Shown piece by piece: positions 9,472-29,167 of a DNA stretch of 38,030 nt. Position 1 is the stretch's first letter. Each line of letters starts with the position of its first letter. A program made the position numbers and the translations under genes. The notes below the pieces were generated by a model. The model was not told where the DNA came from. It did no database searches and was given only the letters and a program-made list of their open reading frames with translations. The stretch comes from Gammaproteobacteria bacterium (GTDB lineage Bacteria > Pseudomonadota > Gammaproteobacteria > Steroidobacterales > Steroidobacteraceae). Location of the stretch: contig JAABQQ010000154.1 of the NCBI GenBank assembly GCA_011391405.1, positions 1-38,030 of the forward strand, given 5' to 3'.

Positions 9472-10542
9472 TCAGCGGATCAGCGTATCAGCGAGACCGG
9501 TGGCGGCAATGCCGCCGCGCAGCACGTGCGTGTCGAAACCCCGTTCGCTGAGGATGTAGGCCGCGGCAGAGCTGCGACGGCCGTTGTCACAGACCGCGAC
9601 GTAGCGGATCGCCGGGTCGAGCGTCTTGATCTTCAGGCGGATGAAATAGAGCGGCACGTTGAGCGATGGCTCGAGGTGCCAGTGCTCGTATTCGCTCGGC
9701 AGGCGCACGTCGAGCCACATGCCACCCTTGGCGACGATCTGCAGGCCCTCTTCGTGGTCGACCCACTGCAGCATCGGCTCGTTCAGCAGGGTGTTGAAGT
9801 CGTCCTTGGCGAGGCGCATCAGCACGCCATCGGTCAGCATCGAGATCGTGGCATTGCGCGCGGCGCCGGAAATCAGCGCTTCCTCGCCGAAGGTCTCGCC
9901 GATGCCCAGCTCCGCGAGCCGGATGCCTTCGCGGTTGAGCGGTGTCTCGCGGCTCACTGAGCAGCGGCCCGAGACGATTACGTAGAAGAAGTCGCCTTCC
10001 TCGCCCTGGCGGATCACCACGTCGCCCGCCGAGTAAGTCATCCGCTGCAGACGCATGAACACGGCCTGCAGGTTGGCCGGCGGAACACGGTGGAAGGCCC
10101 GGCTCTGCAGCAGCATGGTCATCCAGTCGTCCGACGATTCGTTGCTGGCGCCCAGTTCGCCGACTTCGTAGATGCCCGTCTGGTCCCAGGTGATCAGGAC
10201 ATCGAGCAGGTCGCTGTCGATGGACAGGTATTCGATCTTGTCGGAGGCCACCCGCGCCGTGCAGTGGCGGGGCAGGATCGGCGCGATCGGATGGTGTGCA
10301 TCGGTCGTGCCCCCGCGGATGGTGGCAATGACCCGGCCATTTGACAGCAGTTCGACCACCCCGCTCGCGAGGTAGTACGTCCGCTTCTCGGTGTCGCCTT
10401 CCTTGAACAGGAGGCGGCCCTGGGGTAGCTCGCGGATGACGGTCTTGCGCGCGAGCGCCCGGAGGTTCTCGTTCTTGAGCCCGTCGAGCGGTGAAAACGC
10501 ACGCAGGATGCTCAGTTCGACGGTGGTTGGATCGCTGCTCAT
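9472..10542 (-). CDS. Double cyclic-nucleotide-binding-domain protein with C-terminal rhodanese domain
   Basis: A 356-residue cytoplasmic protein in three parts. Residues about 15-130 are a degenerate cyclic-nucleotide-binding (CNB) fold; about 140-255 form a second CNB domain with a recognisable phosphate cassette (GETFGEEALISGAARNATI); about 270-356 are a rhodanese domain with the active-site loop CDNGRRS (Cys318). Thus nucleotide sensing is probably joined to sulfur transfer or redox chemistry, but neither ligand nor substrate is known. The ATG at 10542 was chosen because longer frames run into the fadJ-like gene. No DNA-binding helix-turn-helix is seen, so it is not a CRP-type activator. 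It lies 31 bases downstream of the fadJ-like gene and may be co-transcribed with it. Confidence 0.85.
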   Translation of the reverse strand: MSSDPTTVELSILRAFSPLDGLKNENLRALARKTVIRELPQGRLLFKEGDTEKRTYYLASGVVELLSNGRVIATIRGGTTDAHHPIAPILPRHCTARVASDKIEYLSIDSDLLDVLITWDQTGIYEVGELGASNESSDDWMTMLLQSRAFHRVPPANLQAVFMRLQRMTYSAGDVVIRQGEEGDFFYVIVSGRCSVSRETPLNREGIRLAELGIGETFGEEALISGAARNATISMLTDGVLMRLAKDDFNTLLNEPMLQWVDHEEGLQIVAKGGMWLDVRLPSEYEHWHLEPSLNVPLYFIRLKIKTLDPAIRYVAVCDNGRRSSAAAYILSERGFDTHVLRGGIAATGLADTLIR

Positions 10543-10573
10543 GAAGGCCGGCTGCAAAAGGTGGAGGATGGTA

Positions 10574-12631
10574 TCACGGCGCCCCGCGGCCGCCGAAGTT
10601 CGCCCAGCCCGGATCCGGCCGGAACCTGTCGCCGTGTTTCGAAGCCAGCGCCTCGAGACTTGCCACAACTTCCCCTACGCCACGTTCCCGCGCGTAACGC
10701 AACGGCCCGCCGCGGAATGGGGCGAAGCCTGAACCGAATATCACACCGGCATCGATGAGGTCCTCGTCCGCCACCACGCCTTCCCGCAGTACGGCCATGG
10801 CTTCGTTGACCATTGCCAGCATGAGGCGATCTTCCAGGTCGTCGGGGGCGTGTGCAGAAGGGTCGACGGGCACCTTCACGGCCTTGCCGTCGCGCCATTC
10901 ATAGAGGCCCTGGCCGGTCTTCTTGCCGAGCTTGCCGGCTGCGACCAGCGGAGCCACGGCGTCAGGCGCCGGTCCGCCGCGGGCCACCGACAGGATGCGG
11001 CCGACGTGCAGGCACACGTCGAGGCCGACGATATCTGCGAGTTCGATCGGACCCATCGGCATGCCGAACTTCACGGCCACCTCGTCGATCGTGGCGAGTG
11101 GCACACCTGCGCCGGCAGCGAGCATCGCTTCTGTCATGTACGGCATCAGCACCCTGTTCACGAGGAAACCAGGTGCGCTGCGACACGGCAGCGGCAGCTT
11201 GTCGATGGCTCGCGTGAAGGCGAGGGCGGCGGCGCGAGCCTGCGGCTCGGTCGCGGCCGACTCGACCACCTCGACCAGTGGCATCTGTGCGACCGGGTTG
11301 AAGAAGTGCAGGCCGACGAGCCGGCCCGGTACGGCGAGTTGCTGCGAGAGTGTCTCGAGCATGAGACTTGACGTGTTGGTGGCGAGGAGTGCGCCGGACT
11401 TCAACCGGGGTTCGATGCGCGAGTACAGTTCGCGCTTCGCCTCCGCGTTTTCGTAGATGGCTTCGATCACCACGTCCGCACGTTCGACGCCGTGACCTGC
11501 CACGTCCGCCTGCAATCGCGCGAGCTGCTCGGCGGCCCTGCCGGGAACGCGGCTGCGCTTCTCGAAAAATGCCCGGGCACGATCGAGCGCGGGCTGCACG
11601 AACTCGGCGCCGCGGTCCTGCAGCGTCACGGTGAAGCCGCGGAGCGCGCACCATGCCGCGATGTCGCCGCCCATGACGCCTGCGCCGACGACGTGCACAT
11701 GGCCCCCCGTTGGCAGTTCCTTGCCGCCCAATCCCTTCAACCTTTCCTGCAGGAAGAACACGCGCACGAGGTTGCGTGACGTGGACGTGCAGACGAGCCG
11801 TGCGACCGACTGGGCTTCGGCTTCGTAACCCGTGCGCGGACTTGCGCCGTGGCGGCGCCACAGATCCACGATCGCATACGGCGCGGGGTAGTGTTCCTTG
11901 CGCGCTCGCCGGCGAACCTGGCTCTCGATCCTGCCGGCCACCAGACCGCGCACGATTGGCAGGTTCAGCACGCGCTGACTCAACGGCGCCTGGCGCCGCT
12001 TGCGTGGGCGCAGGGCCAGCATTTTCGCAGCGTCACGCAACTGTCCCGCCGGAACGATCTCGTCGATCAGGCCCGCCTGCAGCGCCTTGTCCGGGCGCAG
12101 GTTCTTGCCGGTCAGCATCAGGTCCATCGCCGGCGCCACACCCACCAGCCGTACAGCGCGAACGGTGCCGCCGAAACCCGGATGAATGCCGAGCATCACT
12201 TCCGGCAGGCCCAGCGTAACCTTCGGATCGTCGGCGCAGACACGATGACGGCAGGCCATGGCCAGTTCGAGCCCGCCGCCAAGGCAGTAGCCGTTGATGG
12301 CAGCGACGGTGGGAAACGGCAGGTCTTCGAGCCGCTGCAGCACGCCGTGAGCCGCGCGGATCGATGGCACTGCGGCGGATGGCTCGCGCACCTGGCCGAA
12401 CTCAGACACGTCGGCGCCCGCGATGAAACCGCTCTTGCCGGAACAGATGACCAGGCCGGCCGGTCGCTGCTGTTCGGTCTGGCGCAGGCGCTCGTCGAGT
12501 TCTTCCATCGCGGCCCGCGAGAGCGAGTTGGCGCTGGCGCCGGGCTTGTCGAAGGTGAGCCAGGCGACGCGATCCGCATCGATCTCGAGCGTCCACTGGC
12601 GTGAGGTTGAGGCAGGCGCGGCAGTGTTCAT
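10574..12631 (-). CDS. Enoyl-CoA hydratase/3-hydroxyacyl-CoA dehydrogenase, FadJ/FadB-like
   Basis: Bifunctional beta-oxidation alpha subunit of 685 residues. The N-terminal crotonase domain has SGFIAGADVSEF, and the two hydratase glutamates Glu122 (GGGLELA) and Glu144 (GLPEVMLGIHPGFGG). The NAD-binding part begins at GAGVMGGDIAAW, followed by ATNTSSLMLETL and GLHFFNPVAQMPLVEVV, which carries the dehydrogenase His and Glu. The ATG at 12631 follows GGAGGA at short spacing. No thiolase (fadA/fadI) gene is next to it, so the partner must be elsewhere. FadJ and FadB cannot be told apart with certainty here, so no symbol is given. Confidence 0.9.
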   Translation of the reverse strand: MNTAAPASTSRQWTLEIDADRVAWLTFDKPGASANSLSRAAMEELDERLRQTEQQRPAGLVICSGKSGFIAGADVSEFGQVREPSAAVPSIRAAHGVLQRLEDLPFPTVAAINGYCLGGGLELAMACRHRVCADDPKVTLGLPEVMLGIHPGFGGTVRAVRLVGVAPAMDLMLTGKNLRPDKALQAGLIDEIVPAGQLRDAAKMLALRPRKRRQAPLSQRVLNLPIVRGLVAGRIESQVRRRARKEHYPAPYAIVDLWRRHGASPRTGYEAEAQSVARLVCTSTSRNLVRVFFLQERLKGLGGKELPTGGHVHVVGAGVMGGDIAAWCALRGFTVTLQDRGAEFVQPALDRARAFFEKRSRVPGRAAEQLARLQADVAGHGVERADVVIEAIYENAEAKRELYSRIEPRLKSGALLATNTSSLMLETLSQQLAVPGRLVGLHFFNPVAQMPLVEVVESAATEPQARAAALAFTRAIDKLPLPCRSAPGFLVNRVLMPYMTEAMLAAGAGVPLATIDEVAVKFGMPMGPIELADIVGLDVCLHVGRILSVARGGPAPDAVAPLVAAGKLGKKTGQGLYEWRDGKAVKVPVDPSAHAPDDLEDRLMLAMVNEAMAVLREGVVADEDLIDAGVIFGSGFAPFRGGPLRYARERGVGEVVASLEALASKHGDRFRPDPGWANFGGRGAP

Positions 12632-20741: not shown

Positions 20742-21278
20742 TCACTGGCCCGGGCGGCCAGTCGAATCGGTGGGCGACTTCGAAATCGCGGCCAGTATCC
20801 CCGACAGGATTCGAGTCGGGGACGGCGGGCATCCCGGCACCACGACATCCACCGGAATCACGTTCGAGACGGCGCCGCAGCTGGCATAACCGCTGCCGAA
20901 GATGCCGCCGCAAGCCCCGCAGTCGCCTACTGCAACTACCAGCTTGGGATCGGGCGTGGCGTCGTACGTCCGACGGAGTGCGACCTCCATGTGGCGTGAC
21001 ACCGGGCCCGTGACGAGCAGCAGGTCGGCATGGCGCGGACTTGCGACAAAGCGGATGCCGAGCGACTCGATGCTGTAGACCGGGTTGCCCAGCGCGTGGA
21101 TCTCGAGCTCACAGCCGTTGCAGGAGCCCGCATCGACTTCGCGGATGCACAGCGCACGACCGAGCACTTCGCGGATGCGCGATTCCAGCGCTTCGCGCAC
21201 GCGCAGCTCGTCCGCCGGAGCCGGTGGAGCTGCGGTGACGATGCCGGTCTTCAATATCTGTTGCAGCGTCTTGAGCAT
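20742..21278 (-). CDS. hyfI: HyfI/HycG/NuoB-like iron-sulfur small subunit of an Ehr-type complex
   Basis: A 178-residue soluble subunit carrying one [4Fe-4S] cluster at the junction with the membrane arm. Likely ligands are Cys53 and Cys56 (GSCNGCELE), Cys120 (GDCGACGG) and Cys150 (PGCPPSP), the arrangement of the proximal cluster in HycG/HyfI and the N2 cluster in NuoB. All four are intact, although the partner large subunit has lost its nickel ligands. It is the last of six adjacent minus-strand genes, nine bases after the hyfG-like stop. No clear ribosome-binding site is seen. Since electron entry subunits are missing nearby, the electron source of this cluster is unknown. Confidence 0.85.
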   Translation of the reverse strand: MLKTLQQILKTGIVTAAPPAPADELRVREALESRIREVLGRALCIREVDAGSCNGCELEIHALGNPVYSIESLGIRFVASPRHADLLLVTGPVSRHMEVALRRTYDATPDPKLVVAVGDCGACGGIFGSGYASCGAVSNVIPVDVVVPGCPPSPTRILSGILAAISKSPTDSTGRPGQ

Positions 21279-21287
21279 GTGCGGGGA

Positions 21288-22823
21288 TCAAAGATCGTGG
21301 CCGCTGTACGACAAGTTGAACGACTTGTTGATGAGCGGAAAGTCGGGAACGATGTTGCCGATGACGGCGTGCTCGAGCGCGGGCCAGTTGTGCCATGACG
21401 GGTCCTGCGGATGGCAGCGCAGGATGGTCCCGTCCGGTCCCGCCTCCAGTCCTGTGACGACGGGTCCGCGCCATGCCTCGATGAGCCCTACGCCGACAGC
21501 CCCTGGCTCCGGCACGGGTACGGCAACCGCATGCTCGCCGGACGGCATCGCGCGCAAGATCCGCCGCAACAGCCGCACCGACTCGGCCAGTTCGTCGAAT
21601 CGGAGGGTGACTCGCGCGAGCACGTCGCCGTCCTGCCGGGTGCAGCGGCGCACGGCGAGCTCATCGTAGGGTGCGCACGCCGCATCCACGCGCAGATCGA
21701 GCGTCTGTCCGCTGGCTCGTCCGGCGAGGCCGACGAGCCCGATCCAGGCCGCCAGTTCGGGCAAGACGGCGCCGGCACCTGCGAATCGATCCCGCAGGCC
21801 GGTGTGTTCTTCGTAGATGCCGCGCAGCACGGTCACTTCATCGGTGAGCTGTGCCAGGTACTCGTCCAGCACCGTGGCACCGGCCGGAGCGAGGTCGTTG
21901 CGCGTGCCGCCCGGCACGACCAGGTCGAGCAGGTAGCGTTGTCCGAGCGCCTGCTCCGTTGCGCGCAGCAGGTGCTCCTTCAGGCGTGAAAACTGCGCGA
22001 GCCCGAAGGCGAACCCGGCATCATTGCCAAGCGCGCCGAGGTCGCCGAGGTGGTTGGCGATGCGCTCGAGCTCGAGCGCCAGCGCACGCAGCCACGACGC
22101 TCGCGGTGGCACAGTGGTCCCCGTCATGCGTTCGAGTGCCTGGCAATAAGACCATGCATAGGCCACGCCCGAGTCACCGGACACCCGTGCCGCGAGGCGG
22201 TGTCCGTCGAGGATCGGCAGTTCGGTGAAGCGTCGCTCGATGCCCTTGTGCACGTAGCCCAGGCGTTCCTCGAGCCGCAGCACTTTCTCGCCCACCACGG
22301 AGAAGCGGAAGTGACCGGGTTCGATGATGCCAGCGTGCACGGGGCCGACGGCAATCTCATGGACGCCATCGCCCTCGACCCGTACGAACGCGTAATCGTC
22401 GATCGGCGACGGAAGCGACGAGGGCATCGGGTCGGCGGCCAACGGGAACGCGTCCACGGGCCAGGCCGCATGGCGCAACCACGGGCGCGTGTCCTGCTCG
22501 GTCGAACGCAGGCCGCAGAGATCGAATACCGCTCGCTGCATCCGACTGGCCGACGGGAACACGTCCTCGACGCCGGGGTACTGTTGGGTGCCGTCCGCGA
22601 TCGCAATGCTCATCGAGATTACACGTGGCGGTGCGATGGCCACGGCATGGAGCGTGTCGCACTGCCCGACCCTGTTCGTGCCCCAGAGCGCCAGCAATCG
22701 TCCACCGGCGGCTGCAATGTCCTGTGCCAGGGCACGCCACTCGACCGGGTCGACGACCAGGTGCAAGTCGGCCGCTCCAGCAGGAGTCGACGTTGCCCGA
22801 GTCATCCAGCGCGAGAGGCTCAC
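21288..22823 (-). CDS. hyfG: HyfG/HycE/NuoCD-like large subunit lacking nickel ligands
   Basis: A 511-residue fusion of a NuoC-like domain (about 1-140) and a NuoD/hydrogenase-large-like domain (GPVHAGIIEPGHFRF near 160 to the end). In hydrogenases the first nickel site is RVCGICxxxH; here it is RVSGDSGVAY, with Ser215, Ser218 and Tyr222. The second site, DPCxxC, reads NLSYSG (503-508), and the protein ends at HDL with no C-terminal extension for a maturation protease. It therefore cannot bind a [NiFe] centre in the known way. This is typical of energy-converting-hydrogenase-related (Ehr) proteins. It starts with GTG at 22823, one base after the hyfF-like stop. The chemistry is unknown; a quinone or other carrier site as in NuoD is possible. 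Confidence 0.88.
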   Translation of the reverse strand: MSLSRWMTRATSTPAGAADLHLVVDPVEWRALAQDIAAAGGRLLALWGTNRVGQCDTLHAVAIAPPRVISMSIAIADGTQQYPGVEDVFPSASRMQRAVFDLCGLRSTEQDTRPWLRHAAWPVDAFPLAADPMPSSLPSPIDDYAFVRVEGDGVHEIAVGPVHAGIIEPGHFRFSVVGEKVLRLEERLGYVHKGIERRFTELPILDGHRLAARVSGDSGVAYAWSYCQALERMTGTTVPPRASWLRALALELERIANHLGDLGALGNDAGFAFGLAQFSRLKEHLLRATEQALGQRYLLDLVVPGGTRNDLAPAGATVLDEYLAQLTDEVTVLRGIYEEHTGLRDRFAGAGAVLPELAAWIGLVGLAGRASGQTLDLRVDAACAPYDELAVRRCTRQDGDVLARVTLRFDELAESVRLLRRILRAMPSGEHAVAVPVPEPGAVGVGLIEAWRGPVVTGLEAGPDGTILRCHPQDPSWHNWPALEHAVIGNIVPDFPLINKSFNLSYSGHDL

Positions 22824-22824
22824 G

Positions 22825-24282
22825 TCATTGCCCCACGATCATGCTGGCCGCGGCGCGATACCAATCGGCCAGGTAGGGAGGAATGTACAGGCCGAGGAGC
22901 AGCACCAGTGCCAGGTGCGCGAACACTGGCAGCAGGGCAGGTTGATGTGGCAGCCGCTTCCCCGTCGATTGACCGAGCACCATCGACTGCACGCGGCTGA
23001 AGATCGCCGCAAACGCGACTCCCAGGGCCAGCAGCAGGATGGGCGTGGCCCACGGCTCCTGTTTCATCGCGGTCGTCAGGATCAGGAACTCGCTGGCGAA
23101 CACGCCGAAAGGCGGGAACCCGAGAATCGCGAGCGAACCGAGCATCAGGCCCCAGCCGATCGTTGGATTGAGTGACAGCAGTCCACGGATGTCTTCGATC
23201 CGCTGCGAGCCCGCTTTCTGCGCCGCGTGACCCACCGTGAAGAAGATGGCCGACTTGGTCAGCGAGTGCACGGTCATGTGCAGCAGGGCGGCAAAGTTGG
23301 CGACGGCTCCGCCCATGCCGAAGGCGAAGGCGATGATACCCATGTGCTCGATCGACGAGTACGCGAACAGTCGCTTGATGTCGCGCTGTCGCCAGAGGAA
23401 CAAGGCGGACAACACGACGGAGAGCAGCCCGAAGACCATCAGGATCTTCGACGGCAGGGTCGACTGCAGCGCTCCCTCCACCAGTATCTTGCAGCGAACC
23501 ACGGCGTACATGGCGACGTTGAGCAGCAGTCCCGACAGCACGGCGGACACGGGCGTCGGGCCTTCCGCATGCGCATCCGGCAACCAGTTGTGCAGGGGCG
23601 CAAGCCCGACCTTGGTGCCGTAGCCCACGAGCAGGAAAGCAAAAGCCAGCCCGAGCACCGTGGGCTCGAGTTCGCCTTTCACGGCGGCCAGGTGCGTCCA
23701 CAGCAGTGCGCTGACGCCTTCGGCGCCGAGCACTTTTTCTGCGGCAAAATACAGCAGGATCGTGCCGAACAGTGCCTGCGCGATGCCGACACCGCAGAGA
23801 ATGAAGTACTTCCAGCCCGCCTCCAGGCTGGCAGGTGTCCGGTACAGTGTCACCAGCAACACGGTCGACAGCGTCGCCGCCTCGAGCGCCACCCAGAGCA
23901 GGCCCATGTTGTTCGTCGTCAGCGCCACCAGCATCATCGTCATGAAGAGCTGGTACATCGAGTGGTAAAGCCGCAGCCGCCCCTGGCTCAGGCGTCCGTG
24001 CTCCATCTCGATCCGCATGTAGGGCCGCGAGAAGATCGACGTCGTCAGGCCCACGAAGGCAGTCAGCGTGACGAGGAACACGTTGAACGGGTCCAGGAAG
24101 AACTGCTCGTTCGCTGCCGTCAGGTTGCCCTGGTTGATCACCCGCACGGTGACCGCCACCGCGGCGAGGAAGGTGCCGAAGCTCAGTGCGATGTTGATCT
24201 CGGCAGCACGCGGGCGTGCGCCCCACACGGCGAGCAGCAGTGACCCGAGCAGCGGTGTCAGCAGGAGAACCGCAAATTCCAC
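22825..24282 (-). CDS. hyfF: HyfF/NuoN-like proton-translocating membrane subunit
   Basis: A 485-residue antiporter-type subunit of the membrane arm with about 14 hydrophobic helices. Key charged residues are visible: the Glu in LLWVALEAATL, the Lys in GYGTKVGLAPLHNWLPDAH, and Lys in HSLTKSAIFF. The second helix Lys found in NuoL is replaced (SGLLLNVAMY), as in HyfF proteins. It begins with a GTG at 24282 directly after the TAG stop of the hyfE-like gene, so translation is coupled. It would move protons or sodium ions in response to redox changes in the soluble subunits; the ion cannot be read from the sequence. Confidence 0.88.
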   Translation of the reverse strand: MEFAVLLLTPLLGSLLLAVWGARPRAAEINIALSFGTFLAAVAVTVRVINQGNLTAANEQFFLDPFNVFLVTLTAFVGLTTSIFSRPYMRIEMEHGRLSQGRLRLYHSMYQLFMTMMLVALTTNNMGLLWVALEAATLSTVLLVTLYRTPASLEAGWKYFILCGVGIAQALFGTILLYFAAEKVLGAEGVSALLWTHLAAVKGELEPTVLGLAFAFLLVGYGTKVGLAPLHNWLPDAHAEGPTPVSAVLSGLLLNVAMYAVVRCKILVEGALQSTLPSKILMVFGLLSVVLSALFLWRQRDIKRLFAYSSIEHMGIIAFAFGMGGAVANFAALLHMTVHSLTKSAIFFTVGHAAQKAGSQRIEDIRGLLSLNPTIGWGLMLGSLAILGFPPFGVFASEFLILTTAMKQEPWATPILLLALGVAFAAIFSRVQSMVLGQSTGKRLPHQPALLPVFAHLALVLLLGLYIPPYLADWYRAAASMIVGQ

Positions 24283-24951
24283 CTACTGGTCCTCCTTGAG
24301 CGATTCGAGGTGGTGCAGGTCGAGGCTGTCGAACTGCTCACGAATCTGGAAGAAGAACACCCCGAGCACCAGCATCGCGACCAGCACGTCGAGCGCCACG
24401 CCGAATTCCACGATCATCGGCATGCCGTAGGTGGCGCTCATGGCGCCGAAGAACAGGCCGTTCTCCATCGACAGGAACCCGACCACCTGCGACATGGCCT
24501 TGCGGCGCGTGATCATGGTGATGAACGCAAGCAGGATGACCGCCACCGCGATACCCAGTGAATTGCGGGTCGCGGTGCTGGCGAGTTCGGCGATCGGCTG
24601 GGCGAGGCCAAAGGAAAACACCACGGTGACGAGCCCGATGAGCATCGTGCCCGGCACGTTGAGCAGCGGCTCGCTGTCCCACTGCACGTTCAACCGCTTG
24701 ATGAGCATGTGCAGCAACCACGGCAACGCAATGACCTTGAGCCCGAGCGTCAGCGCAGCCGACACGTACAGGTGGTTCTGTCCCGTGCGCCAGGCCAGCA
24801 GCATCGTGGCGATGAACAGCATGGCGCCTTGCAGCGCGAGCAGATTCACGAGCGCCACGATCCGTCGCTGGGCGAGCATGGCGAACGACAGCAACAACAG
24901 GATCGCGGCGCAGGCGTTGAGCAGTTGCAGGTCGAATGGCGTGTGCTGCAT
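24283..24951 (-). CDS. hyfE: HyfE/NuoK-related small membrane subunit
   Basis: A 222-residue membrane protein with about six or seven helices. The C-terminal half resembles NuoK: FLSMENGLFFGAMSATYG, then DVLVAMLVLGVFFFQIRE, with the conserved Glu in the MEN motif. The N-terminal half is the HyfE-specific part. The protein ends in a soluble acidic tail (DLHHLESLKEDQ). It lies three bases after the hyfC-like stop and abuts hyfF. HyfE is an accessory membrane subunit in hydrogenase 4-like complexes and is absent from the shorter hydrogenase 3, so it points to a Hyf-type rather than Hyc-type membrane arm. Confidence 0.85.
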   Translation of the reverse strand: MQHTPFDLQLLNACAAILLLLSFAMLAQRRIVALVNLLALQGAMLFIATMLLAWRTGQNHLYVSAALTLGLKVIALPWLLHMLIKRLNVQWDSEPLLNVPGTMLIGLVTVVFSFGLAQPIAELASTATRNSLGIAVAVILLAFITMITRRKAMSQVVGFLSMENGLFFGAMSATYGMPMIVEFGVALDVLVAMLVLGVFFFQIREQFDSLDLHHLESLKEDQ

Positions 24952-24954
24952 GCC

Positions 24955-25905
24955 TCAGGCCCCCAGCAACAGGTGCACGAGCAGGCCCAGCACCGCGAAC
25001 ATGAACGCAGTGGCCATGAACTCCGGCGCGCGGAACACGCGCAGCTTGGCGGAAACGGTTTCCAGCAGCGCGAGCCACAGGCCGGCGACGGCAAGCTTCG
25101 CCAGCAGCGCCGGGATCGACAAGGCCAGCGCGCCGATCCCGGTCTCGCCGATGGATGCGCCCCACGGCACGAACAGCGCGAAGCCGATGCAGGCGTAATT
25201 GAACAGCTTCAGGGCGGCTGCCCACTCCATCAGGGCGAGATGCCGCGCCGAGTACTCGAGCAGCATCGCCTCGTGGATCATGGTCAGTTCGAGGTGTGTC
25301 GCCGGATTGTCCACTGGAATGCGCGCGTTCTCTGCGAGCAGCACCATGGTGAAGGCGACCGCCGTGAACGCGAGGCTCGGATACAGGGCGAGGGGCTGGA
25401 CCACGAGCCGTTCCGCGATCAACGGCAGAGCCGTGGTCGCGGACAGCAGCGAGGCAACAAAGATGACCATCAGCAGGGCCGGCTCGGCGAGGAAGCCGAT
25501 CATCATTTCCCGTCGCGCACCGAGCGTGCCGAACGCAGTGCCGATGTCCATTGCCGCGAGCGACATGAAGACGCGCGCTATCGCCAGGAGTCCGACCAGT
25601 GCAATCGCATCGGCCGCGGAACGGAAGGGCAGGCCCGTGCCCATCGAGGGAATGACCGCCGCTGCGGCAACCATCGCGCCGAACACGATATATGGCGCCA
25701 GGCGGAACAGCGGCGACGCGCCCTCTGCGATGACTGCATCCTTGTGGAACAGTTTTCGAATGCCGTGGTACGGGAGCAGGACACTCGGTGCGCGCCGGTT
25801 CTGCAGCCAGGCACGACACGCGTTGACCCAACCCAGGAACAGCGGGGCGAGGACCAGTGCGGCGAGCACTTCCAGGAACTGGGTGAGCCACGCCACCGCG
25901 CTCAC
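24955..25905 (-). CDS. hyfC: HyfC/HycD/NuoH-like membrane subunit
   Basis: A 316-residue membrane subunit that docks the soluble arm. It has about eight helices and the family loop ENARIPVDNPATHLE, then LTMIHEAMLLEYSARHL, nearly the same as in HycD/HyfC. The cytoplasmic N-terminal loop (RAWLQNRRAPSVLLPYHG) with conserved Arg and Lys is also present. The GTG at 25905 overlaps the hyfB-like stop (GTGA). In complex I the equivalent subunit lines the quinone channel; whether quinone is used here is not known. Confidence 0.88.
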   Translation of the reverse strand: MSAVAWLTQFLEVLAALVLAPLFLGWVNACRAWLQNRRAPSVLLPYHGIRKLFHKDAVIAEGASPLFRLAPYIVFGAMVAAAAVIPSMGTGLPFRSAADAIALVGLLAIARVFMSLAAMDIGTAFGTLGARREMMIGFLAEPALLMVIFVASLLSATTALPLIAERLVVQPLALYPSLAFTAVAFTMVLLAENARIPVDNPATHLELTMIHEAMLLEYSARHLALMEWAAALKLFNYACIGFALFVPWGASIGETGIGALALSIPALLAKLAVAGLWLALLETVSAKLRVFRAPEFMATAFMFAVLGLLVHLLLGA

Positions 25906-27905
25906 AGCATCACCGCGAGCAGCAGCACGAGCGTGATGAAACTGTACGTCAGGTAGACCGAGATGCGGCCTTGCTGCAGCCAGGCCACGGAGTTTGCAGC
26001 CCGGGCGAGCAGGGCCGCGATCGGAAGGTAGACGCCTTTCCAGAACCGGTCGCTGACCTTGACGCGATAGCGTGGCGCCTGATCGTGCGGCGAGGGCAGG
26101 TCACGTTCCATTTCGAAGAACGAGACGAAGATGTGCCGGATCGGCTGACCGAACCCCTCGGCCGTGTCCTGCATGCGCGGATCGAGCCGGCCGAAGCCAC
26201 AATCCCAGGTTGGGGCCCGGCGCACCGGTCGACGGTAGACGATGCGCACGATCAGGAAGGTTGCCGCGACCACGGCCACGATCACCGCCAACAGGACCAA
26301 TGGTGCGTACGACACGTCCCGTTCGGTCAACGGCGCCAGCATCCACCATGACTGACCCGCAAGATTCGGTGCGGCTCCCACCAGTTGCTCGGTGGCGGCA
26401 CCAAGCGCGTGAATCACCTGGTTGGGCAGGAGTCCCAGCAGCACGCACCCGATCGCCAGCCAGACGAGACCCGCCTTCTCGAATCCATCCACGTCGTGCG
26501 CAACGGCCAGCGAGGATTCGCGGGGCTGCCCCAGGAAGACGATGCCGAAGAACTTCACCATGACGTAGCCGGCAAGCGCAGCCGCGAGCGCGACGATGGC
26601 TGCGCCCAACGGCAGCAGCATGTTCACGAACGGTTGCGGCACTTCATGCGAGAACAGGAATGTCTGCAGCAGCAGCCACTCGGACACGAACCCGTTCAGC
26701 GGCGGCAGGCCGGCGATTGCGAGGACGCCCACCAGCGTCAGCCAGGCAGCCCATGGCATTCGGTGAATCAGCCCGCCGAGCCGGCCGAGATTCCGTTCGC
26801 CGGTGGCGTGCAGGACCGCCCCGGTGCCGAGGAACAGCAGGCTCTTCATGAACGCGTGATTGATGGAGTGATACAGCACCGCGACCAGCGCGAGCGCCGC
26901 GAGCTCGGTCATGCCTACGCCATGAAAAACGATGGCCAGTCCGATGCCGGTAAACAGCACGCCGATGTTTTCGACCGACGAATAGGCGAGCAGACGCTTC
27001 ATGTCTGTCTGCACCGCGGCGAAGACCACGCCGAAGATTGCCGTGGCCAGACCCAGTGCAAGCGGGATCAGGCCCCACCACCACAGCGGGTCTCCGATCA
27101 GGTCGAACGTCACGCGCAGCACGCCGTAGATGGCGGTCTTCAGCATGACTCCGCTCATGAGCGCCGACACGGGCGAAGGTGCGGCCGGGTGTGCCTCCGG
27201 GAGCCAGACGTGCAGTGGCAGCAGCCCGGCCTTGGCGCCGAATCCGAACAGCGCAAGCAGGAAGGCGGCGGTTGCCCACGGAGTCGACAGCGTGCTTTCG
27301 CGCATGGCGTCGAACGAGAACAACCAGGTGCCGCCCTGGAGGATGCCGAAGCTCAGCAGGATGGCGATGGCACCGACGTGTGCCATGAGCAGGTAGAGGA
27401 ATCCCGCGCTGCGAATTTCCGGGATGCCGTGCTGGGCAGTCACCAGGAAATAGGACGTCAGGGCCATCGTCTCCCACGCGACCATGAATGCGTAGGCATC
27501 GTCGGCGACCAGCACGAATCCCATGCTCGCGAGAAAGAGGTGGTACTGGAGTCCCATCACCCCCGGTGCGGTTCCCTCGCCCTTACGAAAATAACCCGCC
27601 GCGAACAACGACACACCGGCTGATGCGCTGCCGAGGAGTGCCAGGAACACGCGCGAAAGATTGTCCAGCCGCACGTGCATGGGCAAGTCCGGCAAGCCGA
27701 TGTGCAGGGTGGCGTGCTCGACCGGTTCGGTGAGGCTCAGGGCAGCCACGATCGCGAGACCGACGCCAACGATTGCGCCGAGCGGAAACAACACCCGGCC
27801 GACTAACGCGACGCTGTGGGGCCGCAGCAGTCCGGCAGCGCCCACCACCGCCCAGCACGCGAGCAGTGCCAGGGAAAGGGTCAGGGGCGAGTCGATCGGG
27901 GCCAT
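25902..27905 (-). CDS. hyfB: HyfB/NuoL-like proton-translocating membrane subunit
   Basis: A 667-residue antiporter-type subunit and the first gene of the operon. The helix Glu is in MVAWETMAL, and lysines in GFGAKAGLLPLHVWLPEAH and SGVMLKTAIYG match the proton-channel residues of NuoL. The C-terminal part (RAPTWDCGFGRLDPRMQDT, then IRHIF) is diagnostic for HyfB/HycC. The ATG at 27905 has GGAG twelve bases upstream, longer than usual. It is divergent from the ribbon-helix-helix gene across 72 bases that contain a symmetric -10 box and a palindrome. Confidence 0.9.
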   Translation of the reverse strand: MAPIDSPLTLSLALLACWAVVGAAGLLRPHSVALVGRVLFPLGAIVGVGLAIVAALSLTEPVEHATLHIGLPDLPMHVRLDNLSRVFLALLGSASAGVSLFAAGYFRKGEGTAPGVMGLQYHLFLASMGFVLVADDAYAFMVAWETMALTSYFLVTAQHGIPEIRSAGFLYLLMAHVGAIAILLSFGILQGGTWLFSFDAMRESTLSTPWATAAFLLALFGFGAKAGLLPLHVWLPEAHPAAPSPVSALMSGVMLKTAIYGVLRVTFDLIGDPLWWWGLIPLALGLATAIFGVVFAAVQTDMKRLLAYSSVENIGVLFTGIGLAIVFHGVGMTELAALALVAVLYHSINHAFMKSLLFLGTGAVLHATGERNLGRLGGLIHRMPWAAWLTLVGVLAIAGLPPLNGFVSEWLLLQTFLFSHEVPQPFVNMLLPLGAAIVALAAALAGYVMVKFFGIVFLGQPRESSLAVAHDVDGFEKAGLVWLAIGCVLLGLLPNQVIHALGAATEQLVGAAPNLAGQSWWMLAPLTERDVSYAPLVLLAVIVAVVAATFLIVRIVYRRPVRRAPTWDCGFGRLDPRMQDTAEGFGQPIRHIFVSFFEMERDLPSPHDQAPRYRVKVSDRFWKGVYLPIAALLARAANSVAWLQQGRISVYLTYSFITLVLLLAVML

Positions 27906-27921
27906 TTCGCCATTCTACTCC

Positions 27922-27941
27922 AATGCAAATTGCATTATAAT
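27922..27941. promoter_or_regulatory. Shared bidirectional promoter with palindromic operator (hyf operon / RHH gene)
   Basis: AATGCAA-A-TTGCATT at 27922-27936 is a perfect 7+7 inverted repeat with a one-base centre. It runs into ATTATAAT at 27934-27941, itself a perfect palindrome, so TATAAT reads on both strands (plus 27936-27941, minus 27939-27934). Predicted starts would leave leaders of roughly 30 bases for the RHH gene and roughly 22 for hyfB. The palindrome would fill the spacer of the plus promoter and the start-site region of the minus promoter, so a bound repressor would block both. The -35 boxes are weak on both sides. Confidence 0.6.
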
Positions 27942-27977: not shown

Positions 27978-28184
27978 TTGCCACTCGAGGACCGCACCGC
28001 CCGTCTGACCGTGCTGATCGACCCGCGCAAGAAGGCGTTGCTCGAGCGCATCTGCGCGGAGCAGGACACCACGCCCTCACAGGTCGTCCGACAGTTAATC
28101 CGGCGCTACATCGAAGACCAGACGGGAACGCCGTGGACGCCTGCAGAGTTGGACGCGTTCGAGCGGCCCCGCAAGAGGCGTTGA
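27978..28184 (+). CDS. Ribbon-helix-helix (CopG-like) DNA-binding protein, TTG start
   Basis: A 68-residue protein with the ribbon-helix-helix pattern: strand TARLTVLIDP, helix KKALLERICAEQD, turn TTPSQVVRQLIRRYIED. Such proteins dimerise and bind short palindromes in the major groove. The TTG at 27978 follows GAGGAA at about five bases. A matching palindrome lies 42 bases upstream, across the -10 box of its own promoter and of the divergent hyf operon, so autorepression and control of the operon are the simplest inference. The TGATG overlap with the next gene couples it to the SpeE-like protein. A tail of PRKRR ends the protein. Confidence 0.75.
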   Translation: MPLEDRTARLTVLIDPRKKALLERICAEQDTTPSQVVRQLIRRYIEDQTGTPWTPAELDAFERPRKRR

Positions 28185-29167
28185 TGACCCGTCAATCCGA
28201 CCGCTTGCCGCAGCGAAAGCGCATGACGCGCTTGAGCGTGGCCTCGTCGCAGCAGGATGGTTGGGGATCGACGAGCCAGCGAAATGAGGACCTGCTGTCC
28301 CTGGGCGGTCTCACGATCGACCCTGGCACGCTGGTGCGCGTACTGGAACCGACGGCAGCCGCGTCGGCTGTGCTGTGCCAGCGACTGATGGCGGGCACCT
28401 ATGACAAGCCCTTCCTGGTCGAAGACGGCAAGCATCGCGCGATGTGCTTTACGATCGATGGCAGCGTCCAGAGCGAAATGCGGATCGACGATCCCGACGC
28501 ACTCGTGAACGACTACACGCGCAAGATGATGGCGTTCCTGCTGTTCTGTCCGGAGCCACGACGCGTCCTCATGATTGGACTCGGTGGTGGGTCGCTGGTC
28601 AAATTCTGCAATCGCCACCTGCCGTCGACGCACCTCACGGTCGTCGAGATCGATGCGAACGTCATCGCACTGCGAGCGCATTTCCAGATTCCTCCGGATG
28701 GCACCGACCTGCGCGTCATCCACGGCGACGGTGCCCGCTATGTCGCAGACCTGATCGACTCCGCGGAATTCCCGGACGTGCTGCTCGTCGACGCCTACGA
28801 TCGCGATGGATTACCACGATCGATCGCGGAACCTGAGTTCATCGAGCACTCCCGCCGCATACTCGGCGATGGTGGGGTGTTCGTGATGAACCTCGCCGCC
28901 CATGAGTCGGACAGCACGCTGCAGGTGGAGAGAATTCGCAAGGTATTCGGCGACCCTGTCATTCCGGTGACCGTCGGGTGGGGCGGCAACATGGTCGTTT
29001 TCGCAGGGCCTGCCTTAAGCGATCGGCGGCGGCTGGAGGCCGCTCCAGCGAACGCCCGTCGCGTCGAGCGGACCCTCGATCTCGACTTCCGGATCCTGCC
29101 GGGTCTGGTGCGGAAGCATCTGCAGCAGGCGCAGTACGAGCCAGCGCAGCTTGATCCGGCGCAGTAA
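28184..29167 (+). CDS. SpeE-like (spermidine-synthase fold) protein
   Basis: A 327-residue protein with the Rossmann-type binding core of polyamine aminopropyltransferases: VLMIGLGGGSLVKFC, LTVVEIDANVI, HGDGARYV and DVLLVDAYDRDGLP. The catalytic segment usually seen as a Tyr-His-Glu after the DG motif reads NDYTRKMM here, and the glycine loop is GLGGGS rather than GGGDGG, so real spermidine synthesis is doubtful. A related methyltransferase-like activity is possible. The first about 40 residues are an unconserved, polar extension; the Met at 28223 is an alternative start. It overlaps the RHH stop by one base. Confidence 0.7.
   Translation: MTRQSDRLPQRKRMTRLSVASSQQDGWGSTSQRNEDLLSLGGLTIDPGTLVRVLEPTAAASAVLCQRLMAGTYDKPFLVEDGKHRAMCFTIDGSVQSEMRIDDPDALVNDYTRKMMAFLLFCPEPRRVLMIGLGGGSLVKFCNRHLPSTHLTVVEIDANVIALRAHFQIPPDGTDLRVIHGDGARYVADLIDSAEFPDVLLVDAYDRDGLPRSIAEPEFIEHSRRILGDGGVFVMNLAAHESDSTLQVERIRKVFGDPVIPVTVGWGGNMVVFAGPALSDRRRLEAAPANARRVERTLDLDFRILPGLVRKHLQQAQYEPAQLDPAQ

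What the first reader, a model, noticed from the sequence alone, without database searches (positions are those of the whole stretch)
20742..27905. Hyf-type energy-converting complex without nickel ligands (Ehr-type)
Seen: a compact operon of six genes (HyfB, C, E, F, G and I-like) in which the large subunit reads RVSGDSGVAY where hydrogenases have RVCGICxxxH, and NLSYSG where they have DPCxxC. All four nickel cysteines are replaced, and there is no maturation tail. The proton-channel Glu and Lys residues of the membrane arm and the four cluster cysteines of the small subunit are intact. Known: such nickel-less relatives (Ehr complexes) occur in various bacteria and their reaction is unresolved. 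Inferred: this is an ion pump driven by an unidentified redox or binding reaction, not a hydrogenase and not complex I.
Basis: partly seen in the sequence, partly recalled or inferred. Interest (0 to 1): 0.8.

Follow-up and report, generated by a model that had tools for sequence, protein, structure and literature searches.

The report
Nickel-free relative of hydrogenase and complex I
Six neighbouring genes encode a membrane machine built like a hydrogen enzyme or respiratory complex I but without the metal-binding residues of the first or the quinone-binding residues of the second; it belongs to a known but unexplained group, and the comparisons here narrow what it can be doing.

Summary
Window 20742-27905 (- strand) is a tight hyfBCEFGI operon. 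HyfG has Ser, Ser, Ser, Gly at the four nickel-cysteine sites, ends at the mature C-terminus, and keeps the hydrogenase proton donor (Glu168) and canopy Arg452. HyfI keeps four cluster cysteines. HyfA, D, H and J are missing.

It lies in a nickel-less clade (144 sequences aligned; 48 of 299 Pseudomonadota genomes sampled). The closest studied relative is the six-subunit Hyq 'endo-hydrogenase' of Azorhizobium; the window branch lacks the three cysteines reported invariant in HyqG.

Tests made here: 42 of 66 carrier genomes (34 of 54 high-quality) have no hypD, so it is very unlikely to be a [NiFe] hydrogenase. 57 of 66 have no nifH over cut-off, so recycling nitrogenase H2 is not the general role. 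Complex I's His38/Tyr87 are Ile/Gly (143 and 141 of 144). A 0.9-Mb genome with decayed complex I and no oxidase or Hyp found keeps the genes beside FixABCX-like, ferredoxin and fumarate-reductase genes. Some window-type loci share a small ribbon-helix-helix regulator and palindrome.

Best reading: a proton-pumping oxidoreductase between a ferredoxin-like carrier and a proton-taking substrate, probably quinone (0.4, inferred). Known kind, new variant.

The parts
25902..27905 (-). hyfB-like: NuoL/HyfB antiporter-like subunit, 667 aa, with E145, K225, K256, K354, E409
24955..25905 (-). hyfC-like: NuoH/HycD anchor subunit, 316 aa; overlaps the hyfB stop
25240..25308 (-). HyfC residues 200-222 (NPATHLELTMIHEAMLLEYSARH), aligned with the loop that PMC9474812 calls the ND1 loop: 3-residue insertion and His204, His211, His222, not found at these places in E. 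coli HyfC, HycD or NuoH; His in 112, 114 and 110 of the 114 HyfC sequences aligned
24283..24951 (-). hyfE-like: NuoK-containing subunit, 222 aa
22825..24282 (-). hyfF-like: antiporter-like subunit, 485 aa, with E134, K224, K343, E398
21288..22823 (-). hyfG-like: nickel-less large subunit (NuoC-NuoD fusion), 511 aa
22158..22187 (-). HyfG residues 213-222, RVSGDSGVAY: S215/S218 in place of two Ni cysteines; D217 in 144 of 144
21291..21323 (-). HyfG residues 501-511, SFNLSYSGHDL, ends the protein: S505/G508 in place of two Ni cysteines; N503 at the canopy Asp (HycE D529)
22320..22322 (-). HyfG Glu168, aligned with HycE Glu193, the probable proton donor (beta1-beta2 loop); Glu in 143 of 144
   Evidence: role from PMC9474812 passages
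20742..21278 (-). hyfI-like: NuoB/small subunit, 178 aa, one [4Fe-4S] site (C53, C56, C120, C150)
27978..28184 (+). divergent 68-aa ribbon-helix-helix protein (PF19839 RHH_9), TTG start, overlaps the start of the next gene
27922..27936 (.). inverted repeat AATGCAAATTGCATT between hyfB and the RHH gene; overlaps a 3-mismatch match to the palindrome ATGATAA-N5-TTATCAT found at other loci
28184..29167 (+). spermine-synthase-like gene (PF01564), co-transcribed with the RHH gene by position only; occasional neighbour of the operon elsewhere

Best explanation
A nickel-free, ion-translocating oxidoreductase of the Ehr/Hyq kind. SHOWN by sequence: the NiFe ligands are gone, the complex I quinone ligands are absent, one four-cysteine [4Fe-4S] motif remains in HyfI, the proton-path residues Glu168, Arg452, His258, Glu411 and Arg369 are kept, and the four-subunit membrane arm has its charged residues. 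INFERRED: a soluble low-potential one-electron carrier (ferredoxin or flavodoxin) docks where HyfH/HyfA sit in hydrogenase-4 and exchanges electrons with the HyfI cluster. The cluster reduces, or in reverse oxidises, a small substrate that takes up protons in the emptied HyfG pocket, protonated through Glu168. The membrane quinone entering past HyfC is the likeliest substrate. The change of charge moves the beta1-beta2 loop and the His-rich HyfC loop and drives H+ through HyfE, HyfF and HyfB. In diazotrophs and in genome G259 it would work with FixABCX, so that Fix plus ferredoxin plus this complex equals a split complex I. In the window's organism the donor is not identified.
For: Ni-cysteine sites over 144 sequences: S 123/C 11/A 10; S 124/T 10/C 5/A 4/M 1; S 118/A 16/N 8/C 1 and a gap; G 142/A 1 and a gap. 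hypD not found in 42 of 66 carrier genomes, 34 of 54 of high quality, including single-contig G330, G282 and G231. The HycE proton path R478/D529/H284/E437/R395 and donor E193 (PMC9474812 passages) align with R452 (144 of 144), N503 (143), H258 (144), E411 (144), R369 (144) and E168 (143). D268, shared with complex I NuoD but Phe in HycE: 143 of 144. CxxC and all four cluster Cys in the small subunit. Charged antiporter residues. None of five neighbour families counted lies beside the operon in more than 7 of 99 loci upstream, and the largest non-core ORF cluster within the flanks spans 16 of 81 loci, so a general soluble carrier fits better than a dedicated subunit. G259 (0.9 Mb): no nuoF-family, COX1 or hypD match; best nifH match 23 bits; no tblastn hit for cyo, cyd or NDH-2; nuoB and nuoC/D only as fragments; but Hyq-type genes, a FixABCX-like cluster (ETF domains for FixA/B), a 2[4Fe-4S] ferredoxin, FrdB with a fumarate-reductase flavoprotein, GlpC and ATP synthase. 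Only four ORFs there carry the ferredoxin motif searched: FixX-like, ferredoxin, FrdB, GlpC.
Against: FixX occurs in only 14 of 299 genomes, 7 of them among the 48 clade genomes; 5 of those 7 carry nifH over cut-off and G334 a split partial nifH. The window genome has none, so the Fix link is not general. His38 and Tyr87 of complex I, the known quinone ligands, are Ile and Gly here. G259 is a Hyq-type, not window-type, sequence from an unnamed draft; its FixX, FixC and ferredoxin names rest on NCBIfam matches below the curated cut-offs; no ubiA homologue was found there, though ubiE was. Published Azorhizobium data attribute H2 uptake and H2 evolution to Hyq: a nifK delta-hupSL strain, without nitrogenase, still evolved 56,600 pmol H2 per 10^9 cells per min at under 1 uM O2, and a nifA strain 1,100 (PMC3357923), which a ferredoxin:quinone enzyme does not explain by itself. 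No electron donor, substrate or pumping has been measured.
Confidence: 0.4

Rival explanations
1. Hyq-type endo-hydrogenase: the complex really oxidises and evolves H2, coupled to quinone and the proton gradient, with a non-NiFe site.
For: In Azorhizobium, deletion of hyqRBCEFGI slows diazotrophic growth, raises H2 loss at 20 uM O2 (175 against 12 in the paper's table; the text says tenfold) and lowers H2 evolution under 1 uM O2 (61,000 to 14,000 in the delta-hupSL background); the operon is under NifA control (PMC2650096, PMC3357923). Same six genes and, by the cysteine pattern reported for HyqG, same clade.
Against: No Ni ligands; hypD not found in 42 of 66 carriers; nifH over cut-off in only 9 of 66. 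The authors themselves write that a binuclear Ni,Fe site in HyqG seems uncertain, if not unlikely, and that a cell-free H2 uptake assay was not at hand. The window type lacks the three HyqG cysteines. The 20 uM O2 data can also be read as ferredoxin drainage away from nitrogenase.
Confidence: 0.12
2. MBS-like enzyme: the HyfI cluster itself reduces sulfane sulfur or polysulfide with ferredoxin as donor.
For: MBS is a solved nickel-less relative that also lacks Nqo4 His38/Tyr87 equivalents (PMC7684303 passages); MbsL (6u8y_L) matches the profile at 2.8e-32; several carriers are sulfur oxidisers such as Thiobacillus.
Against: MBS works through a shortened Cys motif that leaves one Fe open, and lacks the MbhL E21 equivalent. 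Here CxxC spacing is intact (140 of 140) and Glu168 is kept (143 of 144). No Mrp-type module and no NuoI/HycF-like subunit in the operon.
Confidence: 0.1
3. Reverse mode as main role: proton-motive force drives electrons from quinol up to ferredoxin/flavodoxin, for nitrogenase or other reductive steps.
For: Same parts list; hyq belongs to the nif regulon in Azorhizobium (PMC2650096).
Against: 57 of 66 carriers have no nifH over cut-off; in delta-hyq cells H2 loss rises rather than falls at 20 uM O2; no shared low-potential consumer among the five neighbour families counted.
Confidence: 0.13
4. Redox-inactive ion transporter or regulator: a fossil complex without catalysis, used as an antiporter or energised uptake system, for example for inorganic carbon.
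For: SulP transporter gene directly upstream in 6 of 99 loci (one of them, L137, a weak match) and a hexapeptide protein, which I take from recall to resemble gamma carbonic anhydrase, in 3 of 99 (Pfam says only Hexapep); RuBisCO gene near in Thiomonas L104.
Against: Cluster cysteines and pocket residues are as conserved as in an enzyme; the SulP link is limited to a few lineages.
Confidence: 0.15

Closest known systems
Hyq 'endo-hydrogenase' of Azorhizobium caulinodans (HyqBCEFGI)
   Same: Six structural subunits B, C, E, F, G, I; HyqG lacks both CxxC motifs; HyqI four cysteines. Sequences with the reported HyqG cysteines fall in the same clade
   Different: Window HyfG has Gly266, Ile498 and Leu504 where HyqG has Cys258, Cys491 and Cys497 (by position from the C-terminus and alignment; HyqG itself not fetched); no NifA or sigma-54 pattern found upstream; an RHH gene lies beside it instead of hyqR
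Ehr complexes (energy-converting hydrogenase-related), e.g. Nitrospira, Sulfobacillus, Margulisbacteria
   Same: Group-4-like operon whose large subunit lacks the Ni/Fe cysteines; function unknown (passages read)
   Different: No formate dehydrogenase or NuoE/F-like gene among the window proteins searched, unlike the proposed FDH-Ehr; no HyfH in the operon
E. coli hydrogenase-4 (hyfABCDEFGHIJR) and formate hydrogenlyase Hyd-3 (hyc)
   Same: Order and kind of B, C, E, F, G, I; best structural match HycE, 7z0s_E, Z 43.0; proton-path residues
   Different: No A, D, H, J in the operon; no Ni cysteines; no C-terminal tail; canopy Asp529 is Asn503
Respiratory complex I (NuoB/CD/H/K/L/M/N core)
   Same: Fold of NuoCD; Asp268 shared with NuoD; antiporter-like arm
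   Different: No NADH module and no NuoI in the operon; His38/Tyr87 absent; CxxC, not CC, in the small subunit
MBS sulfane reductase of Pyrococcus furiosus
   Same: Nickel-less member of the superfamily without quinone ligands
   Different: Intact CxxC and kept Glu168; no Mrp module

Membership tests
Ehr (energy-converting hydrogenase-related) | Group-4-like large subunit without the Ni/Fe cysteines | tested here: met
   definition from passages in PMC6349859, PMC10284858, PMC4378227
Ehr (energy-converting hydrogenase-related) | Antiporter-like membrane subunits in the same operon | tested here: met
Ehr (energy-converting hydrogenase-related) | Position among previously published Ehr sequences in a tree | not tested
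   Those reference sequences were not fetched; the tree holds only sequences fetched here
Hyq endo-hydrogenase | Six structural genes B, C, E, F, G, I | tested here: met
Hyq endo-hydrogenase | Three conserved HyqG cysteines (258, 491, 497) | tested here: not met
   window G266, I498, L504; equivalence by alignment, HyqG itself was not fetched
Hyq endo-hydrogenase | H2 uptake/evolution in vivo | not testable with these tools
   needs cultures
Group 4 [NiFe] hydrogenase | RxCGxC and DPCxxC ligands | tested here: not met
   S215, S218, S505, G508 against HycE C241, C244, C531, C534
Group 4 [NiFe] hydrogenase | Depends on Hyp maturation (HypD present in carrier genomes) | tested here: not met
   hypD not found in 42 of 66 carrier genomes; the window's own genome has it, beside nickel-competent hydrogenases of other groups
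Respiratory complex I | Quinone ligands His38/Tyr87 of Nqo4 | tested here: not met
   I167 (Ile in 143 of 144), G216 (Gly in 141 of 144); ligand names from PMC7684303
Respiratory complex I | NADH-oxidising subunit NuoF in the operon | tested here: not met
   the four nuoF-family matches of the genome lie on contigs C215, C84, C283 and C230, not on C154
MBS sulfane reductase | Shortened small-subunit Cys motif leaving one Fe open | tested here: not met
   C53 and C56 intact, 140 of 140; feature from PMC7684303
MBS sulfane reductase | Polysulfide reduction | not testable with these tools
   needs enzyme

The most novel reading that the evidence does not exclude
[quoted passage not shown] Together with the bifurcating FixABCX and a ferredoxin it forms a split complex I, which in the reduced genome G259 has replaced the decayed complex I. 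The 'endo-hydrogenase' phenotype of Hyq would then be mostly drainage of reduced ferredoxin away from nitrogenase rather than H2 chemistry.
Probability: 0.25. Interest if true: 0.82.

Novelty: new variant of a known kind. Interest (0 to 1): 0.58.

Why it matters
This clade is common (48 of 299 Pseudomonadota genomes sampled), and the window's B and F subunits score above the cut-offs for 'hydrogenase 4' subunits, so genome surveys may credit H2 metabolism to bacteria that cannot make a NiFe site. Its pocket mixes hydrogenase and complex I features, so its substrate bears on how quinone reduction evolved from H2 chemistry. The hypD result and genome G259 turn a vague 'function unknown' into specific tests.

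Tried and rejected
Considered and set aside. (1) Pseudogene or decaying hydrogenase: rejected, pocket and C-terminus are conserved over 144 sequences. (2) A nickel-competent Hyf partner in the same genome: PF00374 and HyfG searches found only three large subunits of other groups and NuoD; the genome is 78% complete, so absence is not final. (3) FixABCX as the general donor system: 7 of 48 clade genomes against 7 of 251 others in the same sample, and 5 of the 7 are nifH carriers over cut-off; not general. (4) A conserved neighbour that names the donor: spermine-synthase-like 7 of 99 upstream and 1 of 116 downstream, SulP 6 of 99 and 1 of 116, YoaK-like 5 of 99 and 1 of 116, MetG 2 of 99 and 4 of 116, hexapeptide 3 of 99 and 0 of 116 (distances use stop-to-stop frames and are approximate); too rare. 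(5) FNR, NifA and sigma-54 patterns upstream of hyfB: none found (a loose GG-N10-GC pattern matched 4 times, as expected of GC-rich DNA). (6) Sigma-70-type promoter: 0 found, 0.8 expected by chance; the 8 terminator-like matches (4.1 expected) lie inside the genes. (8) Ten literature searches, open-access PMC text only and read as listings beyond the papers opened; none was aimed at RHH regulators, so I make no claim that the regulator is unpublished. Only named FixABCX, and its listing showed no paper that I recognised as linking it to Ehr. The founding Ehr papers (e.g. Marreiros et al.) were seen only as citations.

Rows dropped: matches under 60 bits or spanning under 230 profile positions were left out before the alignment of 169 rows. 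144 of the 169 form the clade counted; the cut is at 35.5% identity to the window and the nickel-competent L086 copy was taken out by hand. One search used a wrong column for the HyqG Cys497 equivalent; one search corrects it. 86 of the 144, after removing sequences over 72% identical or short, went into the tree with 25 others. The tree is a quick one with 40 of 108 inner branches under 80% support; L176 is a very long branch that falls inside the clade's 87 rows and is not trusted. Structure prediction used 59 sequences. In one search the subtype was taken from position 258 alone, and two of the 20 RHH neighbours (L055, L083) sit in long frames whose boundaries are unsure. The palindrome was chosen after seeing the same sequences, so its shuffle comparison overstates significance; five loci match it perfectly at 14 set positions.

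Full report
1. What is in the window. B and F score above the NCBIfam cut-offs for hydrogenase-4 subunits B and F; C, G and I match the expected Pfam families; E matches the hydrogenase-4 membrane subunit model below its cut-off. Compared with E. coli hyfABCDEFGHIJR, A, D, H and J are missing from the operon, so the only iron-sulfur motif in it is that of HyfI.

2. The large subunit. HyfG is a NuoC-NuoD fusion whose best solved relative is E. coli HycE (phmmer 4.8e-52; Foldseek E 1.8e-34; VIA-align Z 43.0, rmsd 2.3 over 465 residues), ahead of complex I chains (Z 40.3 and below, over 327-359 residues for most and 463-464 for E. coli). At HycE C241, C244, C531 and C534 the window has S215, S218, S505 and G508. 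The protein stops at the aligned DL with 0 residues after it, against 32 in HycE and HyfG; this held for 142 of 142 sequences above 38% identity. The nickel-competent L086 copy described below also has no tail, so lack of a tail alone does not diagnose nickel loss.

3. What the pocket keeps. In 144 clade sequences: Glu168 143, Asp217 144, Asp268 143, Glu449 144, Arg452 144, Lys500 143, Asn503 143, Tyr506 142, Gly508 142, Asp510 143. PMC9474812 (passages read) gives HycE Glu193 as the probable proton donor at the site where complex I has its quinone-protonating His, a proton path R478/D529/H284/E437/R395, and calls D529 strictly conserved. In my alignment HycE numbers fall exactly on E168, R452, N503, H258, E411 and R369; the last three and R452 are 144 of 144. 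So the clade keeps the donor and the path, changes the 'strictly conserved' Asp to Asn in 143 of 144, and gains Asp217 (Ile in HycE, Leu in NuoCD). The complex I quinone ligands His38/Tyr87 (named in PMC7684303, passages read) are Ile167 (143 of 144 Ile) and Gly216 (141 of 144 Gly).

4. The rest of the complex. HyfI has C53, C56, C120 and C150, conserved in 140, 140, 137 and 135 of 140 loci, the remainder being gaps, with the CxxC spacing of hydrogenases, unlike the tandem CC of NuoB and unlike the shortened motif of MBS. HyfB and HyfF keep the antiporter Glu and Lys residues. HyfC, found in 114 of 143 loci, carries a loop with a 3-residue insertion and His204, His211 and His222 (112, 114 and 110 of 114) that E. 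coli HyfC, HycD and NuoH lack at these places. PMC9474812 counts the matching 'ND1 loop' among those proposed to couple turnover to proton movement.

5. Distribution and tree. A profile found the clade in 48 of 299 sampled Pseudomonadota genomes, the own genome included (my count of the strong matches), and the window protein in 19 of 98 near relatives, own genome included, at E 1e-40. A quick ML tree of 111 sequences puts the clade together (SH-aLRT 95) and splits it into a 26-row group (94) that holds the Hyq-type sequences and a 61-row window group (98). Outside lie other nickel-less types in relatives of the window genome (L028-L033) and one nickel-competent, tail-less sequence, L086 1617-3527, which stands in tandem with a nickel-less operon.

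6. Relation to Hyq. The six-gene hyq operon (with hyqR) of Azorhizobium caulinodans is the best studied relative I found (PMC2650096: passages; PMC3357923: abstract, passages and most of the discussion). Its authors report that HyqG lacks both CxxC motifs but has three conserved cysteines: 258, 491 and 497. By position from the C-terminus and by alignment these correspond to G266, I498 and L504 in the window. C258 and C497 equivalents occur together in 37 of 144 sequences; 102 have Gly or Ala with Leu; the other 5 differ. The window type therefore lacks what is reported conserved in HyqG. HyqG itself was not fetched, so the numbering match is inferred.

7. Is it a hydrogenase? HypD is needed to build the Fe(CN)2CO part of [NiFe] sites (established knowledge). 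42 of 66 carrier genomes have no hypD match at E 0.001, 34 of the 54 high-quality ones, among them the single-contig genomes G330, G282 and G231. By subtype, of 63 typed genomes, hypD is missing in 21 of 37 Hyq-type, 17 of 24 window-type and 1 of 2 mixed. The window's own genome has hypD and three nickel-competent large subunits of other groups. nifH over cut-off occurs in 9 of 66, so recycling of nitrogenase H2 cannot be the general function. Against this stands the published phenotype, including high H2 evolution without nitrogenase in a nifK delta-hupSL strain, which I cannot explain away.

8. A natural experiment. 65 of 66 carriers have a nuoF-family match at E 1e-60 (62 over cut-off); the one without is G259, about 0.9 Mb, listed as 100% complete. 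In 845 kb of it tblastn with E. coli proteins found no cyo, cyd, citrate synthase, sucABCD, NDH-2, PFOR, pflB or PDH, but ATP synthase. A COX1 search was negative. nuoB and nuoC/D survive only as fragments. The Hyq-type genes are present (B and the start of C at one contig end, the rest of C to I at another). Beside them the genome has a four-gene FixABCX-like cluster (ETF domains in the first two, FAD-dependent FixC-like and FixX-like proteins; the FixC and FixX names score below NCBIfam cut-offs), a YfhL-type 2[4Fe-4S] ferredoxin (80.4 bits, cut-off 86), an FrdB over its cut-off with a fumarate-reductase flavoprotein next to it, and GlpC over its cut-off. Four ORFs carry the ferredoxin motif searched: the ferredoxin, FixX-like, FrdB and GlpC. 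This suggests, but does not prove, that the complex takes electrons from ferredoxin and passes them to quinone. FixX is otherwise rare and mostly tied to nifH.

9. Regulation and neighbours. Between hyfB and the divergent gene lies a 68-codon RHH_9 gene (27978-28184, PF19839, 84 bits, cut-off 23), below the 80-aa limit of the ORF list. Relatives lie next to hyfB in 20 of 105 loci with enough upstream sequence, all 20 among the 73 window-type and none among the 32 Hyq-type loci. A palindrome ATGATAA-N5-TTATCAT lies upstream of hyfB with at most 2 mismatches in 11 of 72 window-type and 1 of 29 Hyq-type loci (pattern chosen after the fact). The window has a 3-mismatch version, overlapping an exact 7-base inverted repeat at 27922-27936. 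That the protein binds there is inferred.

10. Verdict. The object is an Ehr-type complex, close in kind to Hyq but without its reported cysteines: a new variant of a known kind. It is very unlikely to be a [NiFe] hydrogenase and is not a complex I. The best mechanism is a ferredoxin-linked, proton-pumping oxidoreductase with quinone as the likeliest partner; the steps beyond the sequence features are inferred.

Noticed in passing
L086 1617-3527 (+) and the operon after it: A betaproteobacterial MAG has a nickel-competent Hyf-type large subunit (ICGVC...ELCYSC, no C-terminal tail) in tandem with a nickel-less operon: a possible intermediate or partner arrangement.
   Followed up: partly
G259 (L183-L242), nuo fragments at L187 5306-6328, FixABCX-like cluster at L209 10394-13906: A 0.9-Mb, GC 33% genome with only fragments of complex I and no oxidase, Hyp or nitrogenase found keeps the Hyq-type genes with FixABCX-like, ferredoxin and fumarate-reductase genes.
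   Followed up: partly
L078, L087, L088, L110, L118, L137 (SulP next to hyfB); L092, L101: SulP transporter genes sit directly upstream of the operon (L137 a weak match), and in L092 and L101 a hexapeptide-repeat protein lies between SulP and hyfB: a possible inorganic-carbon link in autotrophs.
   Followed up: partly
L028-L033 (relatives of the window genome): Two further nickel-less large-subunit types, ending ..SFGLTIAGCDR and ..SFGLSVAENDR (with small variations), occur in the same family; G033 and G049 have both besides the window type.
   Followed up: no
L071 3-2933 and L077 18542-20335: A second nickel-less paralogue (IAGDTSIAHAW or IVGDSVVAYSW, SFDLSYCGNDL) beside or near the main one in Piscinibacter and Rhodoferax.
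   Followed up: no
window 28184-29167 (+): Spermine-synthase-like gene overlapping the RHH gene; relatives lie next to the operon upstream in 7 of 99 and downstream in 1 of 116 loci, on either strand.
   Followed up: partly
window 9472-10668 (-): Protein with two cyclic-nucleotide-binding stretches and a C-terminal rhodanese domain.
   Followed up: no
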